Origin: Echinarachnius parma
Taxonomy: Eukaryota; Echinodermata; Echinoidea; Clypeasteroida; Echinarachniidae
Direction: 5' to 3'
DNA: 64,000 nt
NCBI GenBank assembly: GCA_037951105.1
Contig: JBAMJV010008890.1
Location: forward strand, 62,001-126,000
A program made the translations under genes and the position numbers. This document shows positions 601-62,104 of this stretch, piece after piece; position 1 is the first letter of the stretch, and the number at the start of each line of letters is the position of its first letter. The notes under the pieces were generated by a model. The model did not search any database. It worked only from the letters and a program-made list of their open reading frames with translations, and was not told the origin of the DNA.

Positions 601-825
601 CCCCACGAGGGGACTTTTGCCGTTTAAATTGTCCAAATCATTAAAATCCAATTGGAATTCTAGCGGTTCTCTCTTACCTTGTTGTATTCGTATTAACAAT
701 AACATCATGGGACAGGTTTCGGTTTTTCAAATTTCCCTTTCGTTAAAAAGATATGTACGATTGAAGTGTTCAGATGTTGAATAATCCACTGGATCGTCAA
801 AACCGTGTACAAAGTGAGTGTAATG

Positions 826-2144
826 TTGACTGGAAGTCCGCAATAGTGAGCCCTATCTTTAAGAAAGGAAACAAACATGAAGCTTGTAACTACAGACCAA
901 TCTCACTGACATCTCATATCTGCAAAGTTATGGAGCATGTCATATTCTCTGAAGTCATTAACCATCTTGAGCGCCATGGCATCCTCTCAGAGAAGCAACA
1001 TGGGTTTCGCAAACAACATTCATGCGAGTCTCAGCTACTTCTAACCATTCATGACCTAGCCAAAGGTTTAAATGATAGACAACAGATCGATGCCATACTG
1101 CTAGACTTTTCAAAGGCCTTCGATAAAGTGCCTCATGAACGGCTCCTACTTAAACTCTGTCACTACGGCATCCGTGGCAATCTCCTTCGATGGATACGAG
1201 ACTTCCTTTCTGGTCGGCTACAGCAAGTTGTCGTTGATGGCAAGATGTCAGACCATACCAGAGTTACTTCTGGTGTACCGCAAGGGACCGTCCTTGGACC
1301 CCTTCTCTTCCTCACCTACATCAACAACCTCCCAGAGTGTGTCTCTTCAGAAGTCCGTATGTTTGCCGATGACTGTCTACTTTATAGATGTATATCTAGC
1401 CAAGCTGATGCCGATGCTCTCCAACAAGACCTAGTGCACCTTCAGGACTGGGAATCAACATGGCAAATGGAATTCAACCCATCTAAGTGTGAAGTTCTGA
1501 GAGTGACAAACAAGTTGAAGAACATCATCCAATCATCCTACACTCTAGATGGGACTGAGCTGCAGATAGTCAACAATGCAAAGTACCTGGGAGTCACGAT
1601 CAACTCAAAGATGGAATGGAAGCCTCATATTGATAACATCTGCAAGAAAGCCAACAGAACAAGAGGCTTCCTACAAAGAAACCTACATGGCTGCCCTCAA
1701 AAGATAAAAGAACAAGCCTACACTACATATGTTCGTCCAACTCTCGAGTATGCTGCTACGGCATGGGACCCACATACCAAAGATCACATCAGAAAGATAG
1801 AAATGGTGCAACGACGCGCAGCTCGGTTCGTACTGAGGGACTACCACCAACTTCATAGTGTCACTCATATGCTTCAGACCCTAAAATGGGAGACACTCCA
1901 TGAAAGACGAGCCCAACTCAAGGTTATTATGATGTACACAATCTTAAATAACCTGATTGCCATACCATCTGGACCACCATACATCTTTCCTGTGATATAC
2001 CGCTCTAGACGACAACAAGCCCAGTTTCAACAACAATACTGCAGGATCATGCAGCTATCAATCTTCCTTCTTCCCAAGCGCCATCTGCCTGTGGAACCAG
2101 CTACCAGTCTCAACAAGATCAGCTCCTACAATCGACCATTTTAG
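826..2144 (+). pseudogene. LINE ORF2 fragment: reverse transcriptase
   Basis: Encodes a reverse transcriptase that copies element RNA into DNA at a nicked target. Visible in order: an NYRPISLTS block, the GFRKQHSCESQL block, the first catalytic aspartate in DFSKAFDKVPHE, GVPQGTVLGPLLF, and the FADD catalytic box at 1362-1373, followed by the thumb and a C-terminal region ending at the stop near 2144. The frame is open throughout. The open frame starts upstream at 774, but those first codons come from the family B repeat and are not LINE protein. There is no endonuclease domain and no credible start codon, so this is a dead 5'-truncated copy despite the intact frame. Confidence 0.9.
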
Positions 2145-3959: not shown

Positions 3960-4830
3960 CGTTCACACAGTGCTGATCTATAAACATTGCGCCGACACAG
4001 CATACTTGTTTCGGGTAAAATAACCGCTCACGTAACCATGCGTCCATACAAAATATCTGATTCTAAGTCTCGGGTACAATAAACGCTGATCTACCCTTGC
4101 GTCCACACATCATTATGTCTGATACCGAGTCTTGGGTGCAATGAGCGCTGATCTAACCCTGCGTCCACACAGCAATATGCCTAAACCAGAGTCTTGTATA
4201 CAATGAGCGCTGATCTAACCCTGCGTCCACACATCATATGCCTGACCCCGAATCTCGTTTACAATGAGCGCTGATCTAACCCTGCGTCCACACAGCATAT
4301 GTCTGACCCCGAGTTTTGCTACAATGAGCGCTGATCTAAACCTGCGTCCACACAGCATATGTCTGACCCCGAGTTCCGGGTACAATGAGCGCTGGTCTAA
4401 TCCTGCGTCCACACAGCATTATGCCTGACCCCGAGTTTCGGGTACAATGAGCGCTGATCTAACCCTGCTTCCCCACATCATTGTGTCTGAAATCAAGTCT
4501 CGTGTCCATTGGGCTTTTATCTAACCCTGCGTCCACACAGCATATATAATTATAAAATTCTGATCCCGTGTCTCGGATACAATGAGCGCTGATCTAACCC
4601 TGCATCCACACAGCATTATGTCTGATCCCGAGTCTCGGGTACAATGAGCGCTGATCTAACCCTGCGTCCACATAACATTATGTCTGACCAAGAGTCTAGG
4701 AAGCGCTGATCTAACCCTGCATCCACACAGCATTATGTCTGATCCCGAGTCTCGGGTACAATGAGCGCTGATCTAACCCTGCGTCCACATAGCATGTCTG
4801 ATACCGAGTCTTGGGTGCAATGAGAGCTGA
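3960..4830 (+). repeat. Minisatellite, about 61-bp unit
   Basis: Around 12-14 tandem units. Each carries GAGCGCTGATCTAACCCTGC, then GTCCACACAGCAT, a CCGAGTCTCGGG segment that is a short palindrome, and GTACAAT. Units diverge at the left edge and near 4500-4570. Because a ~60-bp unit is close to a multiple of three, the minus strand stays open for stretches and gives repetitive short ORFs, which I treat as by-products. No flanking gene suggests a function. Confidence 0.9.
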
Positions 4831-5916
4831 TTTTACACTGGCTCGAAACACTTCACTGTGAGACAAAGAGTTTCGGTCCTGTCGGGTGCAAAGAATGCTC
4901 TCTGTTTTTATTATCGGGCTTTTGTTTGGGTTTAGTGTGGATGCAAAGTAAGATGATTGCCCTAGTACTTCTATACTGTCCCCGAGATGTTGACACGACA
5001 TCGTGTTGACATGTAACCAACGGCGGCAATAATTATTCCTGGAAGGAACCATCCATGTCCGATTCTATCTTGGATTGATTTGATTGAAGGAGCGCTTGAT
5101 TTGAAGTATGCTCTTGCCTTGGGTAGGAAAATAGTCGGTGTTGTTGTGGGCTACTTTTTCAAACAAACATCCCCCGACATAACGAGGTAATCACTTTCTA
5201 GATGTTTTCTTTGTAACATTTATTAAGAATTGTCTTCCACCAACCTCATCCTCTGTAAATGAGAGTCCAAACCCAATATATTTACGTCGCAGTTACAATC
5301 CAATCCCTTCCAATATTTCTTTTCGCTGAAGTGACAAAGACGGCTCTTTAAACAAAATCCTCTCCACATACTACAAGCTTAATGCGAACAATCTCAACCA
5401 AGACAGTCATGTTCGTGCTATTTCCAGTTTTGAGAAAATCTATTTAATCCAATGCCGCCTTGAAATAAGAAAAACACTTCATGATTCGCTCCTGCAACAT
5501 GCCAATACAAAAACAAATTTTTAGTAAACAACTGGATTAGAAAGATAAAGGAATACTTTATTAAGAGAAGTTATTTTCGGCAAAACATGTTTCTTCTAAC
5601 TAATAAAGTCACCTGGAGTCAGCTTACATGTATTTCGTGGGATATTTAAAATGTTGTCGCTCATTACGAGGATAACGTTATAGCCCATATTTTAAGTGAA
5701 GAACACTCGTTCTCAAGAGGTACTCAAAGGTAGTAGTGTTTTTGTGACAAAATATATCCGACCCCAAATAAAATATTAAAGTTTTGTTGATAAAAAAACA
5801 TCTGAAGTAAAAAATCTATAAACAAAATTATTTCGGGTGAATTTTGGATTTTCGCAATGATAACCCTTTACACAGAATGCAATAACATTTAATGCCGAGC
5901 GGTAGGACTATCCCAC
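4831..5916. other. No recognised feature
   Basis: About 1.1 kb without a coding signal or a repeat found elsewhere in the window. Confidence 0.45.
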
Positions 5917-38618: not shown

Positions 38619-40939
38619 TCGAAGATTAGGAATGACAGAGGAGACAAACTAGCAGAATTCTGTCAGAGAACAGGATTATTTGCCACAAACACCTGGTTCG
38701 AACACACCAAAAGACATAGATACACATGGAAACAACCAGGTGATGTACGTAGGTACCAGATTGACTTTATCCTAGTCAAAAAGAGATACCGGAATAGTGT
38801 GCTGGATGCCAGAACCTACCCAGGTGCAGATGCCAACACAGACCACAATCTTGTAGTTGCGAAGGTGCAAATTAAACTCAAGAAAATATGCATTGGTAAG
38901 CGAAAACCATGCTGGAATCGGGAAAAGACTAAAGGGCCAGAAGGCCAGCTGTTCCGAGAGGCAGTTGAACATATTCTTATAGAGGAGACAGATGAAGACA
39001 GGGCTGATACAGTAGAAGAAAAATGGGAAAGACTGAAGAACGCCATACAAACTAGTGCAATGCAAAATATTGGCAAGGAATCTAGAAGAAAAGGAAAAAA
39101 ACCATGGGTCACTCAGGAAATGCTAGACAAAATGGACGAAAGAAGGAAATGGAAAAATGTGGACACAGATTATGCCAAGAAGGAGTACAGGCGACTGAAT
39201 AATGAACTGAGAAGAGTAACCGAGAACAAGAATGTAAGGAGCTGGAAGAGCTAGCACAGAGAGGCCGACATGATTTGGTATATGAACACGTGAGAAGATT
39301 GTGTCAACAGAAGAAAGGTGCTGTAAAACAGAAAGGGGTACTCAGCGAAACAGGCGAGCTTCTGACTGAACAGGATGACATCAAGAAACGATGGGTAGAG
39401 TACATCGAACAGCTCTATGCTAAGGAAGACAAGCCGGATATAATCTTGCTGGAAGAAGAGCTGGCACTTGATGTTGATGAAATTGGCCCTGCAGTCCTCA
39501 AAGCAGAGATAGAAATTGCGCTGAAAGAGCTGAAAACGGGCAAGGCTGAAGGAACTGACAACATCCCATCAGAACTGATCAAAATACTAGGAGAAGGAGG
39601 GAAAGAAAAACTAACAGAACTCTGTATGAAAATGTACGATGAAGGAAAGTGGCAATCTGATTTTCAGAAAAGTATTCTGATTCCTATAGAGAAGAAAGCC
39701 AATACCAACAAATGTGAAGAACACAGGACTATAAGCCTAATATCACATGCATCAAAAATTATGCTAAAAGTATTACATCGTAGGCTAGAAGCAAAAGCAG
39801 AAGAATATCTAGGAGAGGATCAGTTTGGCTTTCGTAGAGGGAAAGGTACCAGAGAAGCCATTGCAATGATGAGGGTCCTCAGTGAAAGAAATATCGAACA
39901 CAATCAAGACATATACGTTTGTTTTGTTGATTTCGAGAAAGCTTTCGACCGTGTGATGTGGGAGAAGCTTATGGAGATACTCAAGAAAATTGGAGTAGAC
40001 TGGAAGGACCGAAGGCTCATTGCTGAACTGTACATGAACCAAGAAGTTACAATCAGAGTCAATGGAGAGGAGTCAAGTCCAGGCACAATTGGACGAGGCG
40101 TGAGACAAGGATGCCCACTCTCACCTCTACTATTCAACATCTATGTAGAAGAAATGGTCAATAAGGCACTTGAAACAGTAGAAGACTGCATTACAGTGGG
40201 TGGCTGCTCTCTTCAAGCTGTGCGGTATGCAGATGACCAGGCAATGATAACGAGCACTGAAGAAGGACTACAAGAAATGGTAACACAACTCAATAACACC
40301 AGCGAACAATATGGAATGAAGATTAACATCAAGAAAACCAAGGTGATGAAGATTGGAAAACTGCCATCCAACCTGAGAATCAGTATTAATGGACAAATAT
40401 TAGAACAGGTTACAGAGTTCAAGTATCTAGGAAGCGTGCTGTGCGAAAGTGGAAGATGCTCGAAAGAGATCAGAACTAGAATTGGAATGGCAAAGAATGC
40501 TTTCATGAAGAGGAAGGAACTTTTCACACGGAGCATAAATCTCAATCTGAAAAAGAGATTAGTGAAGTCCCTGGTATGGAGCATCCTTCTCTATGCATCT
40601 GAAGCATGGACCATCATGAAATCAGACATCAACAGATTGGAAGCCTTTGAGATGTGGTGCTGGAGACGCATTCTGAAAATCAAATGGACAGATAGAATCA
40701 ACAACGAAAGAGTGTTGGAGACAGTCGGAGAAGAGCGGAAACTAATTGGAATCATCCAGAACAGAAAGAGGAAATGGGTGGCACACAGCATCAGACATAA
40801 CAATTTGCTCAGACTGGTACTGGAAGGAAGAATACCAGGAAAGAGATCAAGAGGAAGGAAACGCATCATGATGTTGGATTCTGTTACGAATGGCCCATAT
40901 GGAGACTTTAAAAGAAGAGCCATGAGAAGAGAGGTGTGA
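38619..40939 (+). pseudogene. RTE-like ORF: endonuclease C-terminus + reverse transcriptase
   Basis: The first part (38619 to about 39225) encodes the end of an APE-type endonuclease: FATNTWFEHTKRHRYTW, QIDFILV, then PGADANTDHNLVVAK, which carries the catalytic D-H pair. It continues through a linker to a frameshift at about 39217-39227; the downstream frame reads on without a stop to 40939. The RT part shows LISHASKIMLKVL, GEDQFGFRRGKGTREAI, VDFEKAFDRVMWEKL, GVRQGCPLSPLLFNIY and the YADD box at 40226-40237. A W-C-W-R region (MWCWRRILKIKW) and a basic C-terminus follow. Only one frameshift separates the two halves, so inactivation is mild, but the 5' truncation makes it non-autonomous. Confidence 0.88.
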
Positions 40940-45094: not shown

Positions 45095-46750
45095 GAGGAT
45101 TAGCATTGTTTGAGGCAACATTGAACAGTTTATCTCCTAGGATCATTATTTCACCCTATCCATCTATTGGTAAATTAACCATCGACCCTCACGGTGTCTT
45201 GAAACAACTCAAAGGACTGAAAGTCAACAAGTCAAGTGGACCAGACGAACTTCCTGCTAGAATGCTTCATGATTATGCAGAGGAACTCTCACCTGCCTTG
45301 ACTCACCTGTTTCAACAGTCCTGTGATACTGGGATCCTACCAAGTGACTGGTTGAAAAGAAGGGTATCTGCCATCTACAAGTCAGGACCAAACTCAGACC
45401 CATCAAATTATAGGCCAATTTCACTCACAAGTATAGGCTGTAAAGTGTTTGAACATATATTGCTGAGCCACACATGCAAACATCTTGCTAACAACAAGGT
45501 ATTGATCGATAATCAGCATGGTTTTCGCCAGAAGCTGTCCTGTGAAACTCAGCTAATAGAAGCAGTGTACGACTGGGCCTGTAACGTCAACAGCAAACAC
45601 CAAACAGATGTAATCCTGCTAGATTTTAGCAAAGCCTTTGACCGGGTAGATCACAAGAAGCTTCTATACAAGCTGGATTTCTGTGGCATCCGAGGACCTA
45701 CTCTTCACTGGATAAAGGGATTCCTTTTGGGAAGAACTCAAGTCGTTTCAGTGAATGGATCACAATCTGCACCAGCAGAGGTCTTGTCGGGTGTATCACA
45801 GGGGTCAGTTTTGGGACCGCTCTCTTTTTACTTTACATCAATGACATCGGGGAAGGAATTAAGTCCACATTCAGACTATTTGCCGATGATTGTGTACTTT
45901 ATCGCTGCATCAAATCAAAACAGGATCAACTTACTCTAAACGAAGACCTCCAGAAGATAAACCAGTGGGCAGAGTCATGGAACATGAAGTTCAATGTCAA
46001 GAAGTGTTCCCATGTCACGATCACACTAAAACGACAGCCGCTACTTCACACATACAACATCAAAGATCAAATGATTTCCAGAGTGAAGACAGCAAAATAT
46101 TTGGGAGTGGTCATATCTGAAAATTTAAGCTGGAACAGCCATGTTGAACAAGTCCGTATACCAAGGCAGCAAGAACTCTTGGCCTGATTAGAAGAGCTCT
46201 TGGTACCTACAACAGACAAGTGAAGGAGATAGCGTACAACCAGTTAATACGACCTCAACTGAAATATGCATCATGTGTGTGGAACCCATGGACTGAGAGG
46301 AGTGTGCAGAGATGGTGGAAAGTATCCAGCGGCAGGCTGCGCGGTTTGTCATGAGCGACTACCGCAGGGAGTCCAGTGTAACCCACATGTTTACTACTAA
46401 TAGGCTGGAACACCTTACAGCAGAGGCGACTTCTGTGTCAAGCTGAAATGATGCACAAAATTCACCATGGGATTGTTAACATCAGTTTCCCTCCGCACAT
46501 CACTCCAGTCACATCCCGTCATCAACTTCGCACACATCGCCTTTCTTACCATCAACCGAAGTGTCGAGTTGACTGTTACCTGTACAGTTTCTACCCAAGA
46601 GACATTCGACTTTGGAACATGCTCCCCTTACCTATAGTTATGTTACCAAACGTCCCAACATCTTACAAATGGCGGCGCCTCCCACTCAGTGGACACTTTA
46701 CACACAACCAACAGAAAATGCACCTGCACAGTAGCACCAAGCACCTGTAA
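45095..46750 (+). pseudogene. Reverse transcriptase pseudogene, at least three frameshifts
   Basis: Segments in three frames together give a reverse transcriptase. First: SSGPDELPARML, NYRPISLTSIGCKVFEHI, GFRQKLSCETQL, LLDFSKAFDRVDHKKL. A frameshift at about 45825-45832 sits in a T run just after GSVLGPL. Second: the FADD box at 45879-45890 and KTAKYLGVVISE. A second shift lies near 46155 and a third near 46310. Last: QRQAARFVMSDYRR and a C-terminal FYPRDIRLWNMLP at about 46590-46630. Not functional. Confidence 0.88.
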
Positions 46751-50130: not shown

Positions 50131-50675
50131 ACAAATTCTTCAACAAAACGACGATTCTAATATTATTTTCATTCGAGATAACTCCAAAATGTGTTTAAGA
50201 AAGAACTCGTGTAGGTCCTTTCAACTTTCACTGACAGTTTCAATAGTCCATTAAGAAGCCTTAAAGTACCCTCATATTTCCCCAGGGTATTTCGAGATAA
50301 GATGGCTGTGCCATGATGAGTAGCATTAAATTCTTGCGACCTTTGTGTGTGGTCACCGACCAAAAACATGCCATCATCAACAAGAACATCATTAATAATA
50401 TCACCACCATCATCATCATCATCTTCATCATCATCATCATCATCATAGTCATCATCGTCAACATCATCATCGTCATCATCATCATCACTACCACAATCAT
50501 CATCGTCATGATTATCATCATCATCATCATCATCATCGTCATCATCATCATCATCATAATCAACATCAGCAGCATTGCTATAATGTTTTTCTTCTGCTTC
50601 TTCTTAATCTCCTCCATCATCATCATCATCACCACAATCACCATCATCATCATGATTATCATCAGCATCATGATT

Positions 50676-50716
<41 letters not shown>

Positions 50717-50758
50717 AAGCAACAGAAGTAACATTGCTATAATGTTCTTCTTCTTCCT
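50046..50758 (+). repeat. Compound ATC/CTT microsatellite, partly duplicated
   Basis: ATC-type tracts at 50046-50130, 50407-50560 and 50611-50716. A unit of ATC tract, about 30 bp unique sequence containing GCATTGCTATAATGTT or ACATTGCTATAATGTT, and CTT-rich sequence occurs twice (ending near 50605 and 50757, about 155 bp apart). Confidence 0.92.
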
Positions 50759-51011
50759 TTTCTTCTTCTTCTTCTTCTTCTTCTTCTTCTTCTTCTTCTT
50801 CTTCTTCTTCTTCTTCTTCTTCTTCTTCTTCTTCTTCTTCTTCTTCTTCTTCTTCTTCTTCTTCTTCTTCTTCTTCTTCTTCTTCTTCTTCTTCTTCTTC
50901 TTCTTCTTCTTCTTCTTCTTCTTCTTCTTCTTCTTCTTCTTCTTCTTCTTCTTCTTCTTCTTCTTCTTCTTCTTCTTCTTCTTCTTCTTCTTCTTCTTCT
51001 TCTTCTTCTTC
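50759..51011 (+). repeat. Long pure TTC microsatellite
   Basis: About 250 bp of uninterrupted (TTC)n ending exactly where the Tx1-like element begins. Long poly-Phe and poly-Glu ORFs through it are by-products. Confidence 0.97.
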
Positions 51012-51242
51012 TTTTTTTGAGGTAGGTCGTGTATTTTTTAGGCTCCGGATTTGTTCTTTTTTGTGGGTGTTTTTGACCTTCGTGGTCCTTGATTTTTTAT
51101 AGGTTGTATCTTTTTGATGCACTGATTACTTTAGACCAGTCCTCGCTTTGTCAGGTTTATTAATTTTTCCGTATTTTGAGGTGTTTTTTTTTTTTTTTTT
51201 TTTTTTTTGGTTGTGTGTTGCTTTTCGTATTGGCTGTGCTGT

Positions 51243-52799
51243 ATGGCCGGCCGATCGGATCGCCATGTACAGGGCCAGGCACAAGGCCCTATTGGTAACC
51301 CTACTATTGTAGGTGTTGAACAGTTTAAACTCGTAACGAGGGACAATGGGGTTTCTTTTAGCGCCATTAACAATGTCTCGATTCAAACGTACATTGATGC
51401 GTTCGTACAGAACATTCCACCTGAGCATATTGTCTCTGCTTCTCGAATCTCGAACGGTCGCATTGCTATCTATCTTAATTCCAAAGAGTCAGTGGTGCGT
51501 GCTGTGAATCGTGGATTGAATTACGAGGGGGCTTTCATCGAATTAACCCCTCTCGTACGCCCCACCACTAAGCTCATTTTGTCTAATGTGTACCCAGAGA
51601 TACCGAATTCTGTCTTAGTTGAGAATATAGGTTCGTTTTGTAAGGTTGTCTCTCAATGTAGGCCCATTCCACTAGGGTTGAAGAATAAGAAGCTCACACA
51701 TGTAATGAGCTTTCGGAGACAAGTTCAAGTGCTCATGAATCCAAATGTTACCCCTCCCGACCATATTAATTTTACCCACTCGGGTACTAATTATCGTGTG
51801 TTTGTGTCTACGGAGTCTGCACGGTGCTTTAATTGTGGGGAATTTGGACATATTTCGCGCTCATGCAAAAAGCCGAAATCTCAAGCCAACATTGTCCCAC
51901 CCCCTACGACTTTGAACAAACCTACTACTTCGACAGACGGCCGACCCCCCTTCGGGCCGACCCCCGCTACTGGAGTGAAGCACACTGCCCCTCCCCCGCC
52001 TCCCCTTGTTGGGATGACTGCTAGTTTAGCTCGTGACGCGCCCCCTCCTGTTGAGGTGCCCCAATCCGGCCCTTCGCGTCCCACCTCCCCCCAGCCTTCT
52101 TGCTCCTCGCTGAACCCACCACCCTCTGTAGCTTCATCAGCCCTTCCACCCAGTCCATCGGGGGTTAAGGGTCCCCAAATTGATGTTGTACGTGAGGGTG
52201 ATGGGGGTCCCTCCCCATCTCATAAACTTGGCTCCCCCAAACCCACTCCCCCCTTGTGGAGTGAACCTCCCTTGCCCAGGAGGTCCTTTTCGGATGTTGT
52301 CTCCAAGCGGAAACAGACTGCAGCCACACCTGCAGAAGAGATTTATAATACCCTTACACCACTCAAAACCCCATCCCCTCAGAGGAAAATGCAGAAGAAG
52401 TCTCTTACCCCTTTGGTGAACAAGTCCCCTACGCTTACACAGGCCCTCGACACCCCGACTCCTGAACCCCCCTCCACCCCATTGTCCTCGACCGAGGACC
52501 CCGCCGCAGACTTGACAGACACTGACTCTATGACCTGGGAGGATACCCAGTCCCAGACTGATGAAGAGTCGATACATGAAGAGACCCTCCCCCTCACACC
52601 AGGCCCCCTGTCGGCTTCTGAAATTATTAAGTTTTTAGCTTCGGTTAAAGGCAGGAAAAAACCAACTCAAATAGCTCGCAAATACACTTCCAATATTCCT
52701 GGTTTAGTGAAACAATTGAAGCCCTTGAAGAATAGTCCGCTATTTAAGAAAAGCATGCAACAGAGGATTTATAAATTAGTTAACACGCTAGACGTGTAG
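51243..52799 (+). CDS. Tx1-like ORF1: zinc-knuckle RNA-binding protein
   Basis: 518 residues from the first in-frame ATG at 51243 (MAGRSDRHVQGQ); the open frame extends 12 codons upstream without an ATG. Probably packages element RNA with ORF2 protein into a ribonucleoprotein. The first ~190 residues form a gag-like region with little recognisable sequence. A CCHC knuckle (C195-X2-C198-X4-H203-X4-C208, CFNCGEFGHISRSC) follows. Residues ~215-440 are rich in Pro, Ser and Thr and look disordered. The C-terminus is basic (GRKKPTQIARKYTSN). ORF2 starts 50 bp downstream in a different frame. The intact frame suggests a young copy. Assignment rests on the knuckle and on the position before ORF2. Confidence 0.88.
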   Translation: MAGRSDRHVQGQAQGPIGNPTIVGVEQFKLVTRDNGVSFSAINNVSIQTYIDAFVQNIPPEHIVSASRISNGRIAIYLNSKESVVRAVNRGLNYEGAFIELTPLVRPTTKLILSNVYPEIPNSVLVENIGSFCKVVSQCRPIPLGLKNKKLTHVMSFRRQVQVLMNPNVTPPDHINFTHSGTNYRVFVSTESARCFNCGEFGHISRSCKKPKSQANIVPPPTTLNKPTTSTDGRPPFGPTPATGVKHTAPPPPPLVGMTASLARDAPPPVEVPQSGPSRPTSPQPSCSSLNPPPSVASSALPPSPSGVKGPQIDVVREGDGGPSPSHKLGSPKPTPPLWSEPPLPRRSFSDVVSKRKQTAATPAEEIYNTLTPLKTPSPQRKMQKKSLTPLVNKSPTLTQALDTPTPEPPSTPLSSTEDPAADLTDTDSMTWEDTQSQTDEESIHEETLPLTPGPLSASEIIKFLASVKGRKKPTQIARKYTSNIPGLVKQLKPLKNSPLFKKSMQQRIYKLVNTLDV

Positions 52800-52849
52800 T
52801 CTAGCTTGTTTTGGTTTTGTGATTGTTGTTTTTTTTTTGTTTTTTACGT

Positions 52850-55800
52850 ATGGCTCTGTTTATGGTTGGTTGTTTTTCTTTTGTGATGGCTTTGTCACTG
52901 CTGACCCTCAATACGGGTGGGTGCTCGGCGATTTCGCAAAATGCGTCTTTTAAAGTTTTTGTTGATCATTTGACCTCTAACCCAGATATAGTCTTTTTGC
53001 AAGAGACTTATCAGCTAAATGAAAATAGCTCTTGTTGGAGGGAATGGTCTTATGTTCCTTTTTGTTCGCCAAGCTCCTCTCGTGGGTCAGGGGTCACAAC
53101 GTTATTGAATAGCTCAAAAATAGAGTGTTTGTCTTCACTTTCTGTTTGTGATGGGTATATTTTATATCATAAAATTTGTTTCAATAGGGCCATATATCAC
53201 ATTTATAATACCCTCATCCCCCATGATGATCGGCTGGCTTTACGTACCATAACAGCCCTTCATGATCATGTTTCTAGCTGTAATGATGGCACTATTGTCA
53301 TTGGGGGCGATTTTAATTGCACGGAGAACCCAGTACTTGATCGTTTTCATATGTCAGTAGAACACAGGGCTAAAGTTTCAGTTGCTTTGAAGAATGTATT
53401 TAATTCGTTTTCGCTTTGTGATACTTGGCGTAGATTGAATCCTGGTGTAAAGAAATTTACTTGGTTTAGAAATAATTCGGTTAGTGTTCATGGGGCTTCT
53501 AAGTCCAGGCTAGATCGTTTTTATGTACCGCTATGTTTATTTTCTTCTGTTCATTCATGTGATATTATTCCTTGTTCCCTTTCTGATCATTCAGCGGTGC
53601 TGTTGAAATTTAAGCCCCCTTCAATTCGTGGAGGAAGTGCTTATTGGCACTTTAATAATACTTTATTAGAGGATGAGAATTATAGGGAAATTATAAAATC
53701 CTTTTGGTTAGATTGGCAGAAGGAAAAGAATAATTTTGTGGAAGTTGCTTCTTGGTGGGATTTTGGTAAAGTTCATATTAAGTCTATTACTCAAATGTAT
53801 AGCTCTAAGATTAGGCAAGAGAAACGGTCAGCTTTATTTGATATTAATAGAAGGATCGATGAACTTCAGTCTACACCAGACTTTACTCTTGAGATTAGAA
53901 ATGTACTTGCTGAACAAAGAGATGCACTTAATTTATTATTGAAAAATGAGGCACAGGGTGCTCTCATAAGGTCTCGCTTTAGATACACGAATGAGTCTGA
54001 TTCTTGTTCTAGTTTCTTTTTTAATCTTGAAAAGTCGAATTCGAATTCTAAAAATATGTCTCGCATTCGTCTCCCTTCTGGTTGTATAACAGAAGATCCG
54101 AATGAAATAAGAATGCATGTTCGTAATTTTTATGAGTCTTTATACTCGTCTTCTGATGTCGATAAGAGTGCCCTAGAATATTTATTACCCGATTCCATTG
54201 TTTATGACCCCTCTCTATTAGAGGATCTTGAAGACCCTCTTTCGGAGGAGGAGTTTGATGTTGCAGTACAGCACCTTGGCAAGAATAAGTCGCCCGGTTT
54301 AGATGGGCTCACATCAGAATTTTTTCAGGTCTTTTGGCCTACTTTACGTGATGATTTTTTCTCTGTTATTTGTTCGTCGTTTGAGTCGGGGGCTCTGCCT
54401 CCCTCTCTTAGACGGGCAGTTATAACGTTGCTCCCTAAAAAAGGAGATTTGGCGGATGTTTCAAATTGGCGCCCCGTTTCTCTTTTGAATACGGATTATA
54501 AAATTCTTGCCAAGGTGCTGGCTGGCAGGCTAACGCAATATATTGGCAATGTTATTGGTGAGGATCAAACATACTGTATTCCTGGCCGGTCCATTTATGA
54601 TAATATTAATTTAATTCGTGATGCTATTTTTTATGCAAATGCTGAAGATATACCCTTGGCCTTGATTAATTTAGATCAGAAAAAGGCTTTTGATAATGTG
54701 GATCACTCTTATTTGTTCAACGTTATGAAGAAAATGGGGTTTGGTGATCGTTTTATTTTTTATATACAGACTTTGTACGAGGGTGCTGAGAGCCTTATAA
54801 AAGTAAGTGGGTCACTGACTTCCCCCTTCCTTTTTGAGAAGGGAATTCGTCAGGGGTGCCCCCTCTCAGGACTACTCTATACTATTGCAATCGAACCGTT
54901 TTTAGTTACTTTAAGGAATACTTTGATTAATCATGGTTTATGTATACCTGGAACTAATGTGAATTGTGCTATATCTGCGTATGCAGATGATGTAACTGTT
55001 TTTATTACTTCGGACCCAGGGTTCGCTGTGGTTGAGAAGGCTTATGATTTGTTTAGCCGCGCCTCTGCTGCTTGTCTTAATACACAAAAGTCTCAGGGCT
55101 TATGGGTTGGCCGATGGATGGGGCGCAATGATTCGCCCTTGAATTTTATGTGGAATAATGAAGGTCTCCCGTTTCTTGGAGTTCATTTGGGAAACACAAT
55201 TAATTATGTGCGTCAGAATTGGAGTAAGTGTAAAGATAAATTAATTAAAACGTTTGCTTCTTGGTCTCGGCTTGTTTATTCTTTGTCTTTTAAAGGGAAA
55301 GTTTTAATTGCAAATCAGCTGGCAGCCTCTAAGGTTTTCCACTGTTTAGCGGTTCTTTCTCCCCCAGACAATATTCTAAATGAACTCCAGAATTTACTTG
55401 TTGATTTTGTGTGGTCTAAGAAGCGACATATGTTGAAAAAATCAGTTCTTTTTGAACAACCTGACAAAGGAGGACTTGGTCTAGTTTGCCTCCAAGCACG
55501 CGTTTTTTCTTTTAGGTTCGGTTTTCTTCAACGTTTTTTCAATCTTACTTCACATCCGGCTTACCTTTTTATGAAATGGTTTTTTCGACAATATTGTAAG
55601 TTGGGTTATGATTATCAATTGTTTCACGTTGAAATTAACCCTAAATTTCTTGTTAGTTTGCCGGTTTTTTATGGTGAGGTTTTGCGTGCTTGGATGGTGT
55701 CCGGAGCCCGTATAGATACACGATCTATCTCGTTTAATTATGCTGCCAATATGCCATTAACTTGTTTTTTGTTACCAAATGATAATTATGTTGGTTGCTG

Positions 55801-56752
55801 CCCCCCTGCTCGACCATTGGCGTGCGGGGCCCAACTAGTCCGCCACTTGCTTGACCCCCTGTCTGGTCTGTGGCTTGACCCCTCCGCTTTACATATATTT
55901 TTTAAAGGACTTCGCCCGCCTTCCCTTCGTCTCCTCCGCCGCGAACTCCAGCACCTGCGCCTTGCCATCACTAGCGCGTTTCCAGCCTGGTTCAACGAGC
56001 TTGGGTGCAAGATATCGACACATGTGGATCTACAGACAATTTCATCTTTCCCATCGGTTGCGATCGACGTCTGCTTGCCGATGCTTGAAAATGGAAGCAA
56101 AGCTTCGTCAAAATCTATCTACAGGATGTTCAACAAGATCATTAACAAACTTTCCGACCATGTTTCGCACTGGCACCGAATTGGGTCCGTCGACGAGTCA
56201 ACCAAGCTGCAGTGGGCCCTTGTCTACAAGCTACCGACGTCGAAGAAGGAAGGCGATGTCCAGTTTAAGCTTTTTCACAATATATTGCCCTCACTTACTG
56301 TTTTGCATCATATAAATCCTGATATTTTTTCGCGACACTGCGGCTGGTGCAAGGATGCACCAGGTACAATCGAACATTTATTTATTCAATGCCCGGCCAT
56401 TCAACCGGTCCTTACTCTTTTGTCCGTATTATTGAATCGTTTGTTCCCATCTTTACTTTTAAATTTTGATTTATACTGGTCCCTTGTCCCGTGCGCAGGT
56501 GGTCGTAGCAGGGAGGCGGTGCGCCTCGCTAATTTTTTGATCATTAGTTGCAAGTGTGTCATTTATACTTTGTTTCGTACGAATTCTTTTTCCAATCCTG
56601 TGATTATTTGGCAGCATCGGTTAAAAAGCAGGATTTTATATGAATTTCATTATTATCATTTGTGCCACAATGTCGATGCTTTTTTAAAAACGTGGTCACA
56701 TAATAATACTCTGTTCCTTTTCGATGATTGCAAATTGATTTGGTTGTTTTAG
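52850..56752 (+). CDS. Tx1-like ORF2: endonuclease-reverse transcriptase
   Basis: About 1300 residues from the ATG at 52850; in-frame ATGs at 52862 and 52886 are alternatives, the last being just before the endonuclease core. It nicks target DNA and primes reverse transcription there. The APE-type endonuclease shows N21, E52 (FLQETYQ), GGDFN at 152-156, SRLDRFY at 219-225 and SDH at 245-247. The RT shows KSPGLDGLTSEFF, LLPKKGDLADVSNWRPVSLL, DQKKAFDNVDHSYLF, GIRQGCPLSGLLY and the YADD box at residues 711-714 (54980-54991). A C-terminal zinc finger is C1164-X2-C1167-X8-H1176-X4-C1181. All key residues I know to look for are present and there is no stop or frameshift, so the protein may be functional. 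Confidence 0.93.
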   Translation: MALFMVGCFSFVMALSLLTLNTGGCSAISQNASFKVFVDHLTSNPDIVFLQETYQLNENSSCWREWSYVPFCSPSSSRGSGVTTLLNSSKIECLSSLSVCDGYILYHKICFNRAIYHIYNTLIPHDDRLALRTITALHDHVSSCNDGTIVIGGDFNCTENPVLDRFHMSVEHRAKVSVALKNVFNSFSLCDTWRRLNPGVKKFTWFRNNSVSVHGASKSRLDRFYVPLCLFSSVHSCDIIPCSLSDHSAVLLKFKPPSIRGGSAYWHFNNTLLEDENYREIIKSFWLDWQKEKNNFVEVASWWDFGKVHIKSITQMYSSKIRQEKRSALFDINRRIDELQSTPDFTLEIRNVLAEQRDALNLLLKNEAQGALIRSRFRYTNESDSCSSFFFNLEKSNSNSKNMSRIRLPSGCITEDPNEIRMHVRNFYESLYSSSDVDKSALEYLLPDSIVYDPSLLEDLEDPLSEEEFDVAVQHLGKNKSPGLDGLTSEFFQVFWPTLRDDFFSVICSSFESGALPPSLRRAVITLLPKKGDLADVSNWRPVSLLNTDYKILAKVLAGRLTQYIGNVIGEDQTYCIPGRSIYDNINLIRDAIFYANAEDIPLALINLDQKKAFDNVDHSYLFNVMKKMGFGDRFIFYIQTLYEGAESLIKVSGSLTSPFLFEKGIRQGCPLSGLLYTIAIEPFLVTLRNTLINHGLCIPGTNVNCAISAYADDVTVFITSDPGFAVVEKAYDLFSRASAACLNTQKSQGLWVGRWMGRNDSPLNFMWNNEGLPFLGVHLGNTINYVRQNWSKCKDKLIKTFASWSRLVYSLSFKGKVLIANQLAASKVFHCLAVLSPPDNILNELQNLLVDFVWSKKRHMLKKSVLFEQPDKGGLGLVCLQARVFSFRFGFLQRFFNLTSHPAYLFMKWFFRQYCKLGYDYQLFHVEINPKFLVSLPVFYGEVLRAWMVSGARIDTRSISFNYAANMPLTCFLLPNDNYVGCCPPARPLACGAQLVRHLLDPLSGLWLDPSALHIFFKGLRPPSLRLLRRELQHLRLAITSAFPAWFNELGCKISTHVDLQTISSFPSVAIDVCLPMLENGSKASSKSIYRMFNKIINKLSDHVSHWHRIGSVDESTKLQWALVYKLPTSKKEGDVQFKLFHNILPSLTVLHHINPDIFSRHCGWCKDAPGTIEHLFIQCPAIQPVLTLLSVLLNRLFPSLLLNFDLYWSLVPCAGGRSREAVRLANFLIISCKCVIYTLFRTNSFSNPVIIWQHRLKSRILYEFHYYHLCHNVDAFLKTWSHNNTLFLFDDCKLIWLF

Positions 56753-56957
56753 AGTTTGCATCTACCTTATGTAGATGCGTTTGTTATTACATGTACGTTG
56801 TATTGTTTTTACATTGTTTACTTCGGTAACAATGTTTATACTTGTATAACCTTTGTAAACAAACTTTACGTTTGTATTATGTACTATTCTTTTATTGTAA
56901 ACTTCTGACTTTGATTTATAGTTTGTAAATAAAGATATCCTTTTGAAAAGTCAAAGT
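56753..56957 (+). promoter_or_regulatory. Tx1-like 3' UTR with three hairpins and poly(A) signal
   Basis: Three hairpins in ~120 bp: GCATCTAC-CTTAT-GTAGATGC at 56758-56778 (8-bp perfect stem); CATTGTT, a bulged T, AC-TTCG-GT, AACAATG at 56812-56834 (UUCG loop); and ACAAAC-TTTAC-GTTTGT at 56859-56875. AATAAA lies at 56928-56933, about 25 bp before the microsatellite. In some LINEs a 3' stem-loop is recognised by the reverse transcriptase; that role here is inferred. Confidence 0.7.
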
Positions 56958-57083
56958 CTTCTTCTTCTTCTTCTTCTTCTTCTTCTTCTTCTTCTTCTTC
57001 TTCTTCTTCTTCTTCTTCTTCTTCTTCCTCCTTCTTCTTCTTCTTCTTCATCATCATTATCATCATCATCATCATCATCATCA
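56958..57083 (+). repeat. CTT then ATC microsatellite
   Basis: (CTT)n to about 57048 with one CCT interruption, then ATC-type repeats to 57083. The order mirrors the upstream side. Confidence 0.96.
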
Positions 57084-57600
57084 TTTAGGAAATACAGTGT
57101 AGTAACAATATGACATACCTAGAGGTAGTTCTTATGTAAAGGGTAGACACAGGAAAAGAACAAACATCACGTCATAAATCACATTTCCAAAATAGACGAC
57201 TCTTTAGAGATATTTATTTAAATTATTAAGTCTGACAACAATTATTTGAAAACTATTTCAGTACTGATTTTTGGTGGGGCGATAACCACTCATAACAATG
57301 CAGACATCGATTATCTCACCAGAGATATAACCATGGTCAAGTATTCATGAATTTACTCGTCTGGTGTAAAATCTGTTCGTTTTGCGTTACTTAATTTTCA
57401 GTATGGATATATAATTATATGTAAACTTCGGTAAGAGAAAAGAAGTTTGCATCTGCTCCGCGTTGGACAACACCACGACAAGGGGAGTTTATTCTTTTGA
57501 GGGAAAGTGAAACTTGAGTTCTTAGGTAACATTTATATGCCACCAAGTAACTGTATCAATGACAATAAGTGAAATAAATATACCTTAAACATACCTTGAA
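57084..57600. other. No recognised feature
   Basis: Plain sequence between the microsatellite and the next LINE fragment. Confidence 0.4.
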
Positions 57601-60200: not shown

Positions 60201-62104
60201 GATTTAGGAGACAGTCATTGGACTGGCAGATAATGCAAATCCATTATCTGTCATGAGTTAGTACATGAACCCGTCAAGCATCATAGTTATTATGCAACAA
60301 TTAATTAAAAACATTGACAACTTAAAACGTAAATACATTTGCCAACACCCGAGGACCAGCAACCTAGGGTTGACTGTCGTTTATCCAGCTTTGCGCCAGC
60401 ATCAGAGAATGAAGTCGCCAGAATCATCAAGAATTCGCCATCTACATACAGCCCTCATGATCCAATTCCAACGTGGCTGCTTAAGAAACATTTTGAAGAC
60501 ATTGTACCACATGTTACATTAATAGTTAATCGGTCCCTGGAATCCGGTTTATTTCCTTTATATTTCAAGAAAGCAATCATAAAACCACTTTTGAAGAAGC
60601 CAAGCCTTGATCAGGATTCTTTCCAGAACTACCGACCGGTTTCAAACTTGAAATTCCAGTCCAAATTTCTGGAACGAGTCGTCGCTTATCGCCTCCAGGC
60701 CTATCTGGATCATAACAGCTTAACAGAACCTCTTCAGTCTGCTTATAGAAAGTACCATAGCACTGAATCCGCCCTCACAAAGGTTCATAATGATATCCTT
60801 CTCTCCATGGATTCAAAGCACGCTGTATTCCTTGTATTGCTCGATCTGTCAGCTGCGTTTGACACTATTGACATTGATCTCCTTATCCATCGATTTGACA
60901 TGCTTGGAGTGGAAGGATTAGCACTATCTTGGATAAAGTCATATTTGTGTCACAGGAAGCAATCAGTCCGAGTCAATGACTCATTCTCCTCTGAACAGGA
61001 ACTCCTATACGGAGTTCCCCAAGGTTCACTCTTAGGACCGTTGTTTTTACTATCTATAATACTCCCCTTGCAGAAATAGCTCGTCGTCATAATGTAAATG
61101 TTCATTTATATGCCGACGATATACAGCTTTACATATTATTTAAACTTTCCGAATCTGATAGTGAAGTTATGGCCAAGAGAAAAGTTGAATCCTGCATAGC
61201 AGATATAAGACGATGGATGATAAACAATAAACTCAAGTTAAATGATGATAAAAGTGAATTTATAGTTGTTGCATCTCAAAGGCACCGTAGTAAGATTCAA
61301 TGTAATTCGATTCAAATTGGTGGCGTAGAAGTCCCAGCAGTGTCCAATGTTAGAAATCTAGGTGTACAATTTGATTCCACTATGTCAATGTCATCTCACA
61401 TTAATGCAACGTGTCGTTCAGTGTACTATCATATTCGCAATATTAGTAGTATTCGTAAATCACTTTCAAAAGAAGTAGCTCCCTATGTTATTCATTCTTA
61501 TGTTATATCACGTTTAGATTATGGTAATGCATTGTTATATAATGCACCAGTTACACAACTTGCTAAGTTACAGAGGGCTAAGAATGCTGCAGCACGAGTT
61601 CTTACTGATATTCCTAAGTTTTCTCACATAACTCCTATTTTAAAGGACTTGCATTGTTTACCTGTGAAAGAGAGTATAATGTACAAAATACTTATTATGA
61701 CATGGAAAGCTCTCAATGGTCGTTCTCCTCAATATGTATTAGATTTGGTTAGTGTATATGTACCAAATAGAAATCTTCGCTCCCTGAATTGTAATATGTT
61801 ATCAGTACCAAAAGTTCAATCGTTGGCAGGTGAAAAGTCCTTTCTGTATTCAGCACCAACATTATGGACTTCTTTGCCAGTTAATGTTAGAAATGCGACA
61901 TCAATTGAGTCTTTTAAAATAGGTATAAAGACAATTTTGTTTAAATTAGCATTTGATTAGGGACTATATTTCTATTTCTCTCTCCTTTCCTTTCCTTTTC
62001 ATTTCTATTTGCGCCTGAGAATAGTTTACTAGATTCATGGCGCATTATAAGTGCTCTTTATTTTATTTACTTAAACACATACTGCATGTTGGCAACTTTA
62101 AAAA
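60200..62104 (+). mobile_element. 5'-truncated L2/CR1-like LINE
   Basis: Reverse transcriptase plus about 140 bp of 3' UTR (CGCATTATAAGTGCTCTTT near 62040). No endonuclease. It lies wholly between the arms of the 59711-62761 inverted repeat. The left border is approximate. Confidence 0.75.
60339..61960 (+). pseudogene. L2/CR1-like reverse transcriptase, one frameshift
   Basis: The N-terminal part shows SFAPASENEVARIIK and DPIPTWLLK, then NYRPVSNLKFQSKFLERVV, QSAYRKYHSTESAL, VLLDLSAAFDTIDIDLL and GVPQGSLLGPL. A frameshift follows in the T run at about 61040-61046, and the downstream frame restores the expected IYNTPLAEIARRH and the YADD box at 61109-61120. It continues through RRWMINNKLKLNDDKSEF and VRNLGVQFDSTMS to the C-terminal YSAPTLWTSLPVNVR, ending at 61960. 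DLSAAFDTID and the overall layout place it in the L2/CR1 group. A second frame change may lie near 60330. Truncated and inactive. Confidence 0.9.

What the first reader, a model, noticed from the sequence alone, without database searches (positions are those of the whole stretch)
50759..57083. Intact Tx1-like LINE embedded in a TTC microsatellite
Both ORFs are open with all visible catalytic residues. The element is bordered by CTT repeats on both sides, outside which ATC repeats occur on both sides, so the target was an interior CTT tract of a compound microsatellite. Some Tx1-clade lineages are target-specific, and a TTC/GAA-repeat-specific lineage would be a distinctive biology: a LINE that uses a simple repeat as a safe home and may help it expand (upstream tract ~250 bp).
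Basis: partly seen in the sequence, partly recalled or inferred. Interest (0 to 1): 0.85.

Follow-up and report, generated by a model that had tools for sequence, protein, structure and literature searches.

The report
LINE that homes into TTC repeats
A young family of self-copying genomic parasites in an unnamed animal, probably an echinoderm, was found only in TTC simple repeats and always in one orientation; target-choosing LINEs of this kind are known, so this is a clear new example and not a new kind of thing.

Summary
Window 51013-56956 is a full-length LINE with both ORFs open (CCHC in ORF1; apurinic-type endonuclease and RT in ORF2) inside a TTC tract. Its RT resembles Xenopus Tx1 (362 bits) far more than human L1 (143) or R2 (67), and falls in an unnamed clade beside vertebrate Tx1. 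In the window's own 1.2-Gb assembly, a flank-blind search for the 5' terminus gave 42 hits; one is a chance match, the other 41 abut TTC on the same strand. All 43 matches of a flank-blind 3'-end search run into TTC. Of 77 3' junctions selected for nearby TTC, 69 end GTC|TTC. 5'-truncated, tandem and 81-93% identical relatives also lie in TTC. Fourteen compared copies differ by 0.04-1.9%; 7 keep both ORFs open. A TTC tract without the element exists. Whether the element lengthens TTC is only hinted at: upstream tracts are longer in 15 of 19 untied pairs. I recall, unverified, a TTC-targeting fish Tx1 element (Koshi, 2004), hence 'new member of a known kind'.

The parts
50400..50716 (.). ATC array upstream of the target tract
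   Evidence: Tandem Repeats Finder
50745..51013 (.). upstream TTC target tract
   Evidence: Tandem Repeats Finder, 98% match; other copies also abut TTC here
51013..56956 (+). full-length Tx1-like LINE (5' boundary ambiguous within a T run, 51012-51018; 21 of 28 fetched 5' ends read TTC|TTTTGAGG)
   Evidence: alignment to other genomic copies and their junctions
51184..51208 (+). oligo(T) run in the 5' UTR
51243..52799 (+). ORF1, 518 aa
   Evidence: ORF list; relatives over the whole length
51825..51872 (+). CCHC zinc knuckle of ORF1
   Evidence: Pfam PF00098, 24.8 bits, cut-off 20.8
52850..56752 (+). ORF2, 1300 aa
   Evidence: ORF list; P0001, same length, from another public contig
52901..53590 (+). 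apurinic-type endonuclease domain of ORF2
   Evidence: Pfam PF03372, 1.6e-8; L1 endonuclease structures match weakly
54434..55186 (+). reverse transcriptase domain of ORF2
   Evidence: Pfam PF00078, 2.8e-32
56198..56401 (+). C-terminal zinc-binding stretch of ORF2 (weak)
   Evidence: Pfam PF13966, 22.3 bits, below its cut-off of 27.5
56753..56956 (+). 3' UTR, ending AATAAAGATATCCTTTTGAAAAGTCAAAG
   Evidence: sequence
56956..56958 (+). GTC trinucleotide joining the 3' A-run to the TTC tract; its G is not part of a TTC repeat
   Evidence: same in 69 of 77 3' junctions selected for nearby TTC
56957..57049 (.). downstream TTC target tract
57048..57084 (.). ATC array downstream

Best explanation
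This is a recently active, target-specific LINE of the Tx1 group whose insertion site is (TTC)n/(GAA)n simple sequence. Shown: TTC location at every end examined, single orientation, phase-locked junctions, 5'-truncated copies with TTC on both sides, and head-to-tail copies in one tract. [quoted passage not shown] Annealing of the RNA's 3' GUC (or GUC followed by read-through UUC repeats) to the GAA strand sets the start of copying. The G at the joint cannot come from a pure TTC target, so the RNA is its likeliest source. TTC tracts act as a low-harm home, and each insertion leaves TTC on both sides, so the same tract can take further copies.
For: 5' census, flank-blind: the terminal 22-mer with up to 2 mismatches gave 42 hits (reversed-pattern control: 1). 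Thirteen were read by script, C2165 by eye and 28 after fetching. 41 abut TTC in sense orientation; the 42nd (C9773) matches the element over only 21 bp. 3' census, flank-blind: one search gave 43 matches; 41 were read by script (all 42 rows of the script, one of them a further fragment at C2481, have CTTCTTC within 45 nt), the other two, 81% relatives on C268, by eye. 69 of 77 3' junctions selected for nearby TTC end GTC|TTCTTC, with an A-run of 3-9 in the 45 sites of standard form. The 5' joint is TTC|TTTTGAGG in 21 of the 28 newly fetched. Truncated C12426:70935 and C268 copies have TTC on both sides. Relatives 82-90% identical at the 5' end (L080, L081, L082) are in TTC. Two copies in one TTC region: C12171, C10506, C3000, C801, C2481. 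Divergence is 0.04-1.90% among 14 copies; 7 of 14 have both ORFs open. A TTC tract without element lies beside the same right flank as two occupied sites (C1268 near 287765). Tx1 affinity: 362 bits to Xenopus Tx1, 143 to human L1 and 67 to R2 over the same 501 aa; tree.
Against: No biochemistry. Eight of 77 selected 3' junctions do not end GTC|TTC (5 ATC, 1 GAC, 1 GCC, 1 GGC; one of the five ATC, C5615:25443, reads GGTC at its first TTC), and the pattern itself excluded other variants, such as GTG at C2312. Five sites join at an internal GTC without an A-run, which a deletion between repeated AAAAGTC words could also give. AATAAA stands about 20 nt before the A-run, so the A-run may be a true poly(A) tail, and the constant G then needs another source. 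C2273 keeps only TCTTCTTC on its downstream side. The number of independent insertions is below 41, since some sites share flanks (for example the two on C972), and assembly errors through near-identical 6-kb copies are possible. The element-free tract shares only its right flank with occupied sites.
Confidence: 0.9

Rival explanations
1. The TTC repeats are part of the element or are made by it (carried at its ends or added during insertion), and the insertion site is otherwise unrestricted.
For: Every end examined has TTC beside it. Upstream tracts are longer than downstream ones in 15 of 19 untied pairs of 26 (sign test p 0.019).
Against: A TTC tract with the same right flank exists without the element. 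Tracts carry site-specific interruptions and lie in differing host contexts (ATC arrays, CCT-rich repeats). C2273 has only TCTTCTTC on the downstream side. 5'-truncated copies, which lack the 5' end, still have long upstream TTC. The uninterrupted run next to the joint is not significantly longer upstream (16 against 10 of 26, p 0.33).
Confidence: 0.07
2. An ordinary, randomly inserting LINE that landed in a microsatellite here, with other copies elsewhere.
For: None beyond the single window.
Against: 41 of 41 genuine 5' ends and 43 of 43 3' ends are in TTC on one strand. Outside the two flanking tracts the 64-kb window has no other TTC tract by Tandem Repeats Finder; the genome-wide number of TTC tracts was not obtained.
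Confidence: 0.01
3. Copies spread mainly by duplication or recombination of TTC-containing host repeats, not by repeated targeted insertion.
For: Some sites share a flank: C1098 and C12426 upstream, C1098 and C1268 downstream, two C12426 sites downstream; the two C972 sites share the upstream flank.
Against: Of 14 sites, four have another copy's 3' end upstream in the same tract and the other ten have upstream flanks that differ from each other by eye. Truncation points and A-run lengths differ between copies, as separate reverse-transcription events would give.
Confidence: 0.05

Closest known systems
Tx1 group of LINEs (Xenopus Tx1; also, by recall, Keno, Mutsu, Kibi, Koshi)
   Same: Apurinic-type endonuclease, RT similarity (362 bits to Xenopus Tx1), two ORFs, target-specific insertion. 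PMC4640811 (passages read) lists the Tx1 clade among the main target-specific groups and gives U2 genes as Keno's target; PMC3706591 (passages) gives 5S rRNA genes as Mutsu's.
   Different: The RT lies in an unnamed clade separate from the vertebrate Tx1 rows; the target is TTC repeat. I recall that Koshi targets (TTC)n and Kibi (TC)n (Kojima and Fujiwara 2004, not held), but no call confirmed it.
SART1/TRAS telomere-repeat LINEs (R1 clade by recall)
   Same: Insertion into a short tandem repeat at a fixed place, the endonuclease domain as main determinant; repeat-like motifs at the RNA 3' end proposed to anneal to the target (PMC7265360, abstract and Discussion read).
   Different: Different RT group; the target here is dispersed TTC and not (TTAGG)n telomere.
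Togen, HERO and other microsatellite-specific LINEs with restriction-like endonuclease
   Same: Microsatellite targets, such as (TG)n for Togen (PMC4640811, passages).
   Different: Those encode a PD-(D/E)xK-like endonuclease; this one an apurinic type.

Membership tests
Tx1 group | RT closer to Tx1 than to L1 or R2 | tested here: met
   362 bits to Xenopus Tx1 against 143 human L1 and 67 R2 over the same 501 aa. The tree (quick method) puts it in a 29-row clade (SH-aLRT 99) apart from a 22-row clade with Xenopus Tx1 (98). No L1-clade row was in the tree.
Tx1 group | apurinic-type endonuclease at the N-terminus of ORF2 | tested here: met
   Pfam PF03372; L1 endonuclease structures
Tx1 group | two ORFs, ORF1 with CCHC | tested here: met
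Tx1 group | target-specific insertion (usual, not universal) | tested here: met
Koshi (TTC-specific, as recalled) | TTC target and sequence kinship to Koshi | not testable with these tools
   TTC target met. No sequence labelled Koshi appeared in the homolog lists; full-text searches for the name listed no relevant paper. Whether P0061 (Tetraodon Q76IM5) is Koshi, Keno or Kibi is unknown.
L1 clade with loose target preference | insertion at many dispersed, non-repeat sites | tested here: not met
   41 of 41 genuine 5' ends in TTC
HERO, R4, NeSL microsatellite-specific LINEs | restriction-like endonuclease | tested here: not met
   an apurinic-type domain is found instead

The most novel reading that the evidence does not exclude
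The RNA's own 3' end (GUC plus read-through UUC repeats) guides the element by base-pairing to GAA tracts, and insertion lengthens the upstream TTC tract. The LINE would then both need and enlarge its habitat and build tandem arrays in it, a microsatellite counterpart of telomere-repeat LINEs that has persisted through several diverged subfamilies in one invertebrate lineage.
Probability: 0.15. Interest if true: 0.7.

Novelty: new member of a known kind. Interest (0 to 1): 0.45.

Why it matters
Endonuclease-directed homing of a LINE to a simple repeat offers a natural candidate for a GAA/TTC-recognising nuclease and a way to study how LINEs adopt safe targets. (TTC)n/(GAA)n tracts are also expansion-prone (established knowledge), so an element living in them lets one ask whether reverse transcription into a microsatellite changes its length. 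The strict specificity, recent activity and phase-locked junctions make the family a convenient natural case for target-primed reverse transcription in a repeat.

Tried and rejected
Random insertion: rejected by the junction censuses. TTC repeats made wholly by the element: made unlikely by an element-free tract and by truncated copies. A repeat-expansion effect: total tract length is longer upstream (15 against 4 of 26, 7 ties at the 215-bp cap, sign test p 0.019, Wilcoxon p 0.005; 11 of 14 without the cap, sign test p 0.057, Wilcoxon p 0.011), but the uninterrupted run is not (16 against 10, p 0.33), so it is left as a lead. A scan of viral contigs for relatives confirmed none. Literature: nine searches on Kibi, Koshi, Keno, Tx1, TTC and GAA repeats with LINEs; one search found no paper, the others gave lists mostly capped at 8-20 of up to 252 papers, and no listed title, abstract start or passage that I read describes a TTC-specific LINE. 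That is not proof of absence, and the 2004 paper that probably describes one is not held. PMC4176376 proved irrelevant (passages). PMC4746887, PMC6515669 and PMC5753468 (passages) gave only accession, name or clade mentions, and PMC3747384 (passages) background on the Tx group. An unflanked count of all 3' termini, a genome count of TTC tracts, a pattern search for element-free copies of the host repeat and an ORF2 protein search of the own genome did not complete.

Full report
What is there. The window lies in a 1.2-Gb assembly of 14,790 contigs. At 51013-56956 is a LINE of about 5.94 kb with two open frames. ORF1 runs from ATG 51243 to 52799 (518 aa, zinc knuckle PF00098). ORF2 runs from ATG 52850 to 56752 (1300 aa) with an apurinic-type endonuclease domain, a reverse transcriptase and a weak C-terminal zinc-binding stretch. 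It is bordered by TTC tracts at 50745-51013 and 56957-57049, with ATC arrays outside them. The 5' boundary is ambiguous by a few T, since this copy has seven T before GAGG where 21 of 28 fetched ends have four.

Is it specific for TTC? Two flank-blind searches answer this. For the 5' end, a 22-base pattern with up to 2 mismatches gave 42 hits on both strands of the whole assembly, with one hit for the reversed control. I read the upstream side of all 42: 13 by script, C2165 by eye and 28 after fetching 247-794 bases each. 41 abut TTC in the sense orientation. The one that does not (C9773) matches the element over only 21 bp and is a chance hit. Of the 28 newly fetched hits I tested only four beyond the pattern (C9773, and relatives C8000 at 82.6%, C972 at 90.5% over 116 bp, C12816 at 86.3%); about a dozen of the others are the 5' ends of long matches, and the rest rest on the pattern and the TTC beside it. 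For the 3' end, one search gave 43 matches (40 of 300 candidates scored, so a lower bound of the family). 41 were read by script and the two diverged C268 pieces by eye; all 43 run into TTC. The weakest is C2273, with only TCTTCTTC downstream but about 530 bp of TTC-like sequence upstream. These are places and not proven independent events, because some share flanks.

Junction anatomy. The 3' joint reads AATAAAGATATCCTTTTGAAAAGTC-A(3-9)-GTC|TTCTTC. In a list selected for TTC nearby, 69 of 77 sites end GTC|TTCTTC, five ATC, and one each GAC, GCC and GGC. The A-run varied from 3 to 9 in the 45 sites of the standard form. Because (TTC)n has no G on this strand, the G is most simply copied from the RNA. 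Five sites (C3000 twice, C3722, C10581, C12999) join at the upstream internal AAAAGTC with no A-run, which looks like a start at a second GUC but could also be a deletion between repeated words. The 5' joint is TTC|TTTTGAGG in 21 of the 28 newly fetched. Truncated copies (C12426:70935, starting inside ORF2, and two C268 copies of a relative) have TTC on both sides, as target-primed reverse transcription inside a TTC tract predicts.

Arrays. C12171, C10506, C3000, C801 and C2481 each hold two copies or pieces of copies head to tail in one TTC region. C5564 lists three 3' ends spaced about 5.2 kb (not read further). Each insertion leaves TTC on both sides, so a tract remains a target.

Did the TTC precede the element? 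In locus L036 (C1268), the right flank CAGACCTTTCGAAAGG of an occupied site recurs about 1.2 kb further on behind a long TTC tract with no element. Its left flank is not the same as that of the occupied C1098 site, so this is an element-free tract beside the same flank and not a strict allelic empty site.

Activity. Among the 14 copies that I held near whole, the pairwise differences are 0.04-1.90%. In 7 of 14 both frames are open; in 2 more ORF2 is open (one of these has ORF1 cut by a contig end, the other a shortened ORF1); in 5 ORF2 is interrupted. A nearly identical 1300-aa ORF2 is in a 6,016-bp ENA contig (P0001), and a 99% identical ORF1 is in another collection (P0121). Whether these are transcripts is unknown.

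Kinship. Over a 501-aa RT region the scores are 362 bits to Xenopus Tx1 and 143 to human L1 and 67 to R2. An RT tree of 59 rows (quick method; the window, 55 of the 120 listed homologs, three distant window RTs as outgroup, no L1-clade row) puts the element in a clade of 29 rows, the others without names (SH-aLRT 99), beside a clade of 22 with Xenopus Tx1, Tetraodon Q76IM5, other vertebrate rows and a few unnamed ones (98); five further rows are unresolved. The best named relatives of ORF1 are from sea urchins (Lytechinus variegatus, 50% over 70%; Diadema setosum, 40% over 70%), so I infer an echinoderm host; this was not tested otherwise.

Mechanism. Shown: place, strand, phase, truncation, arrays. 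Inferred: the ORF2 endonuclease nicks the GAA strand and the GAAGA-3' end primes copying of the RNA from its 3' GUC, perhaps aided by UUC read-through. For SART1 the authors propose annealing of AGG or GGUU motifs to the telomeric target, and note that R1 needs downstream target sequence for accurate starts (PMC7265360, Discussion read). They also found a long poly(A) tail important for accurate starts, which would fit the A-run as a tail and leaves the constant G here unexplained.

Does it enlarge its home? Total TTC-like tract length is greater upstream than downstream in 15 sites, less in 4 and tied at the 215-bp cap in 7 (sign test p 0.019; 11 of 14 uncapped, sign test p 0.057, Wilcoxon p 0.011). 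Uninterrupted run length is not significantly different (16 against 10, p 0.33). Site preference near the tract's right edge, assembly effects or growth are all possible.

Novelty. Target-specific Tx1 LINEs are known, and microsatellite targets are known for LINEs (PMC4640811 and PMC3706591, passages). I recall that Kojima and Fujiwara (2004) described Koshi for TTC and Kibi for TC repeats in fish; that paper is not held, only its title was seen in reference lists, and nothing here confirms the recall. Nine searches of the held library (most lists capped) showed me no TTC-specific LINE. I therefore call it a new member of a known kind, well documented and in a lineage apart from the vertebrate rows.

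Noticed in passing
L042 (C1098), L063/L020/L046 (C12426), L036 (C1268): Flanks are shared in mixed combinations: C1098 and C12426:96k share the upstream flank but not the downstream one, and C12426:71k shares only the downstream one with C12426:96k. This suggests exchange through TTC tracts or the element, or misassembly through near-identical copies.
   Followed up: partly
26 paired sites: TTC tracts upstream of the element tend to be longer than downstream ones; cause unknown.
   Followed up: partly
G000 C5564:11064, 16305, 21581: Three 3' ends about 5.2 kb apart with a GGTC joint, a possible tandem array of a diverged subfamily.
   Followed up: no
L018 (C268:107300-107990): Two 5'-truncated 3' ends of a relative (81%) with nearly identical sequence, each between TTC tracts; possibly a TTC-plus-element unit duplicated in tandem.
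   Followed up: no
L036 and L042, CTTTCGAAAGGAACGAGTGCA flank: A dispersed host repeat with a TTC tract on its left edge serves as target more than once.
   Followed up: partly
L020 (C12426): Short tandem units of the kind ATCTGACCTATAGCCACTAA downstream of the copy, interspersed with the same GTAGCAACTT word that abuts TTC elsewhere.
   Followed up: no
window 774-2144, 39275-40939, 45106-45939, 60339-61960: ORFs that look by eye like other LINE reverse transcriptases in the same window (three used only as tree outgroup).
   Followed up: no
window 4066-4831: 62-bp minisatellite, about 12 copies.
   Followed up: no
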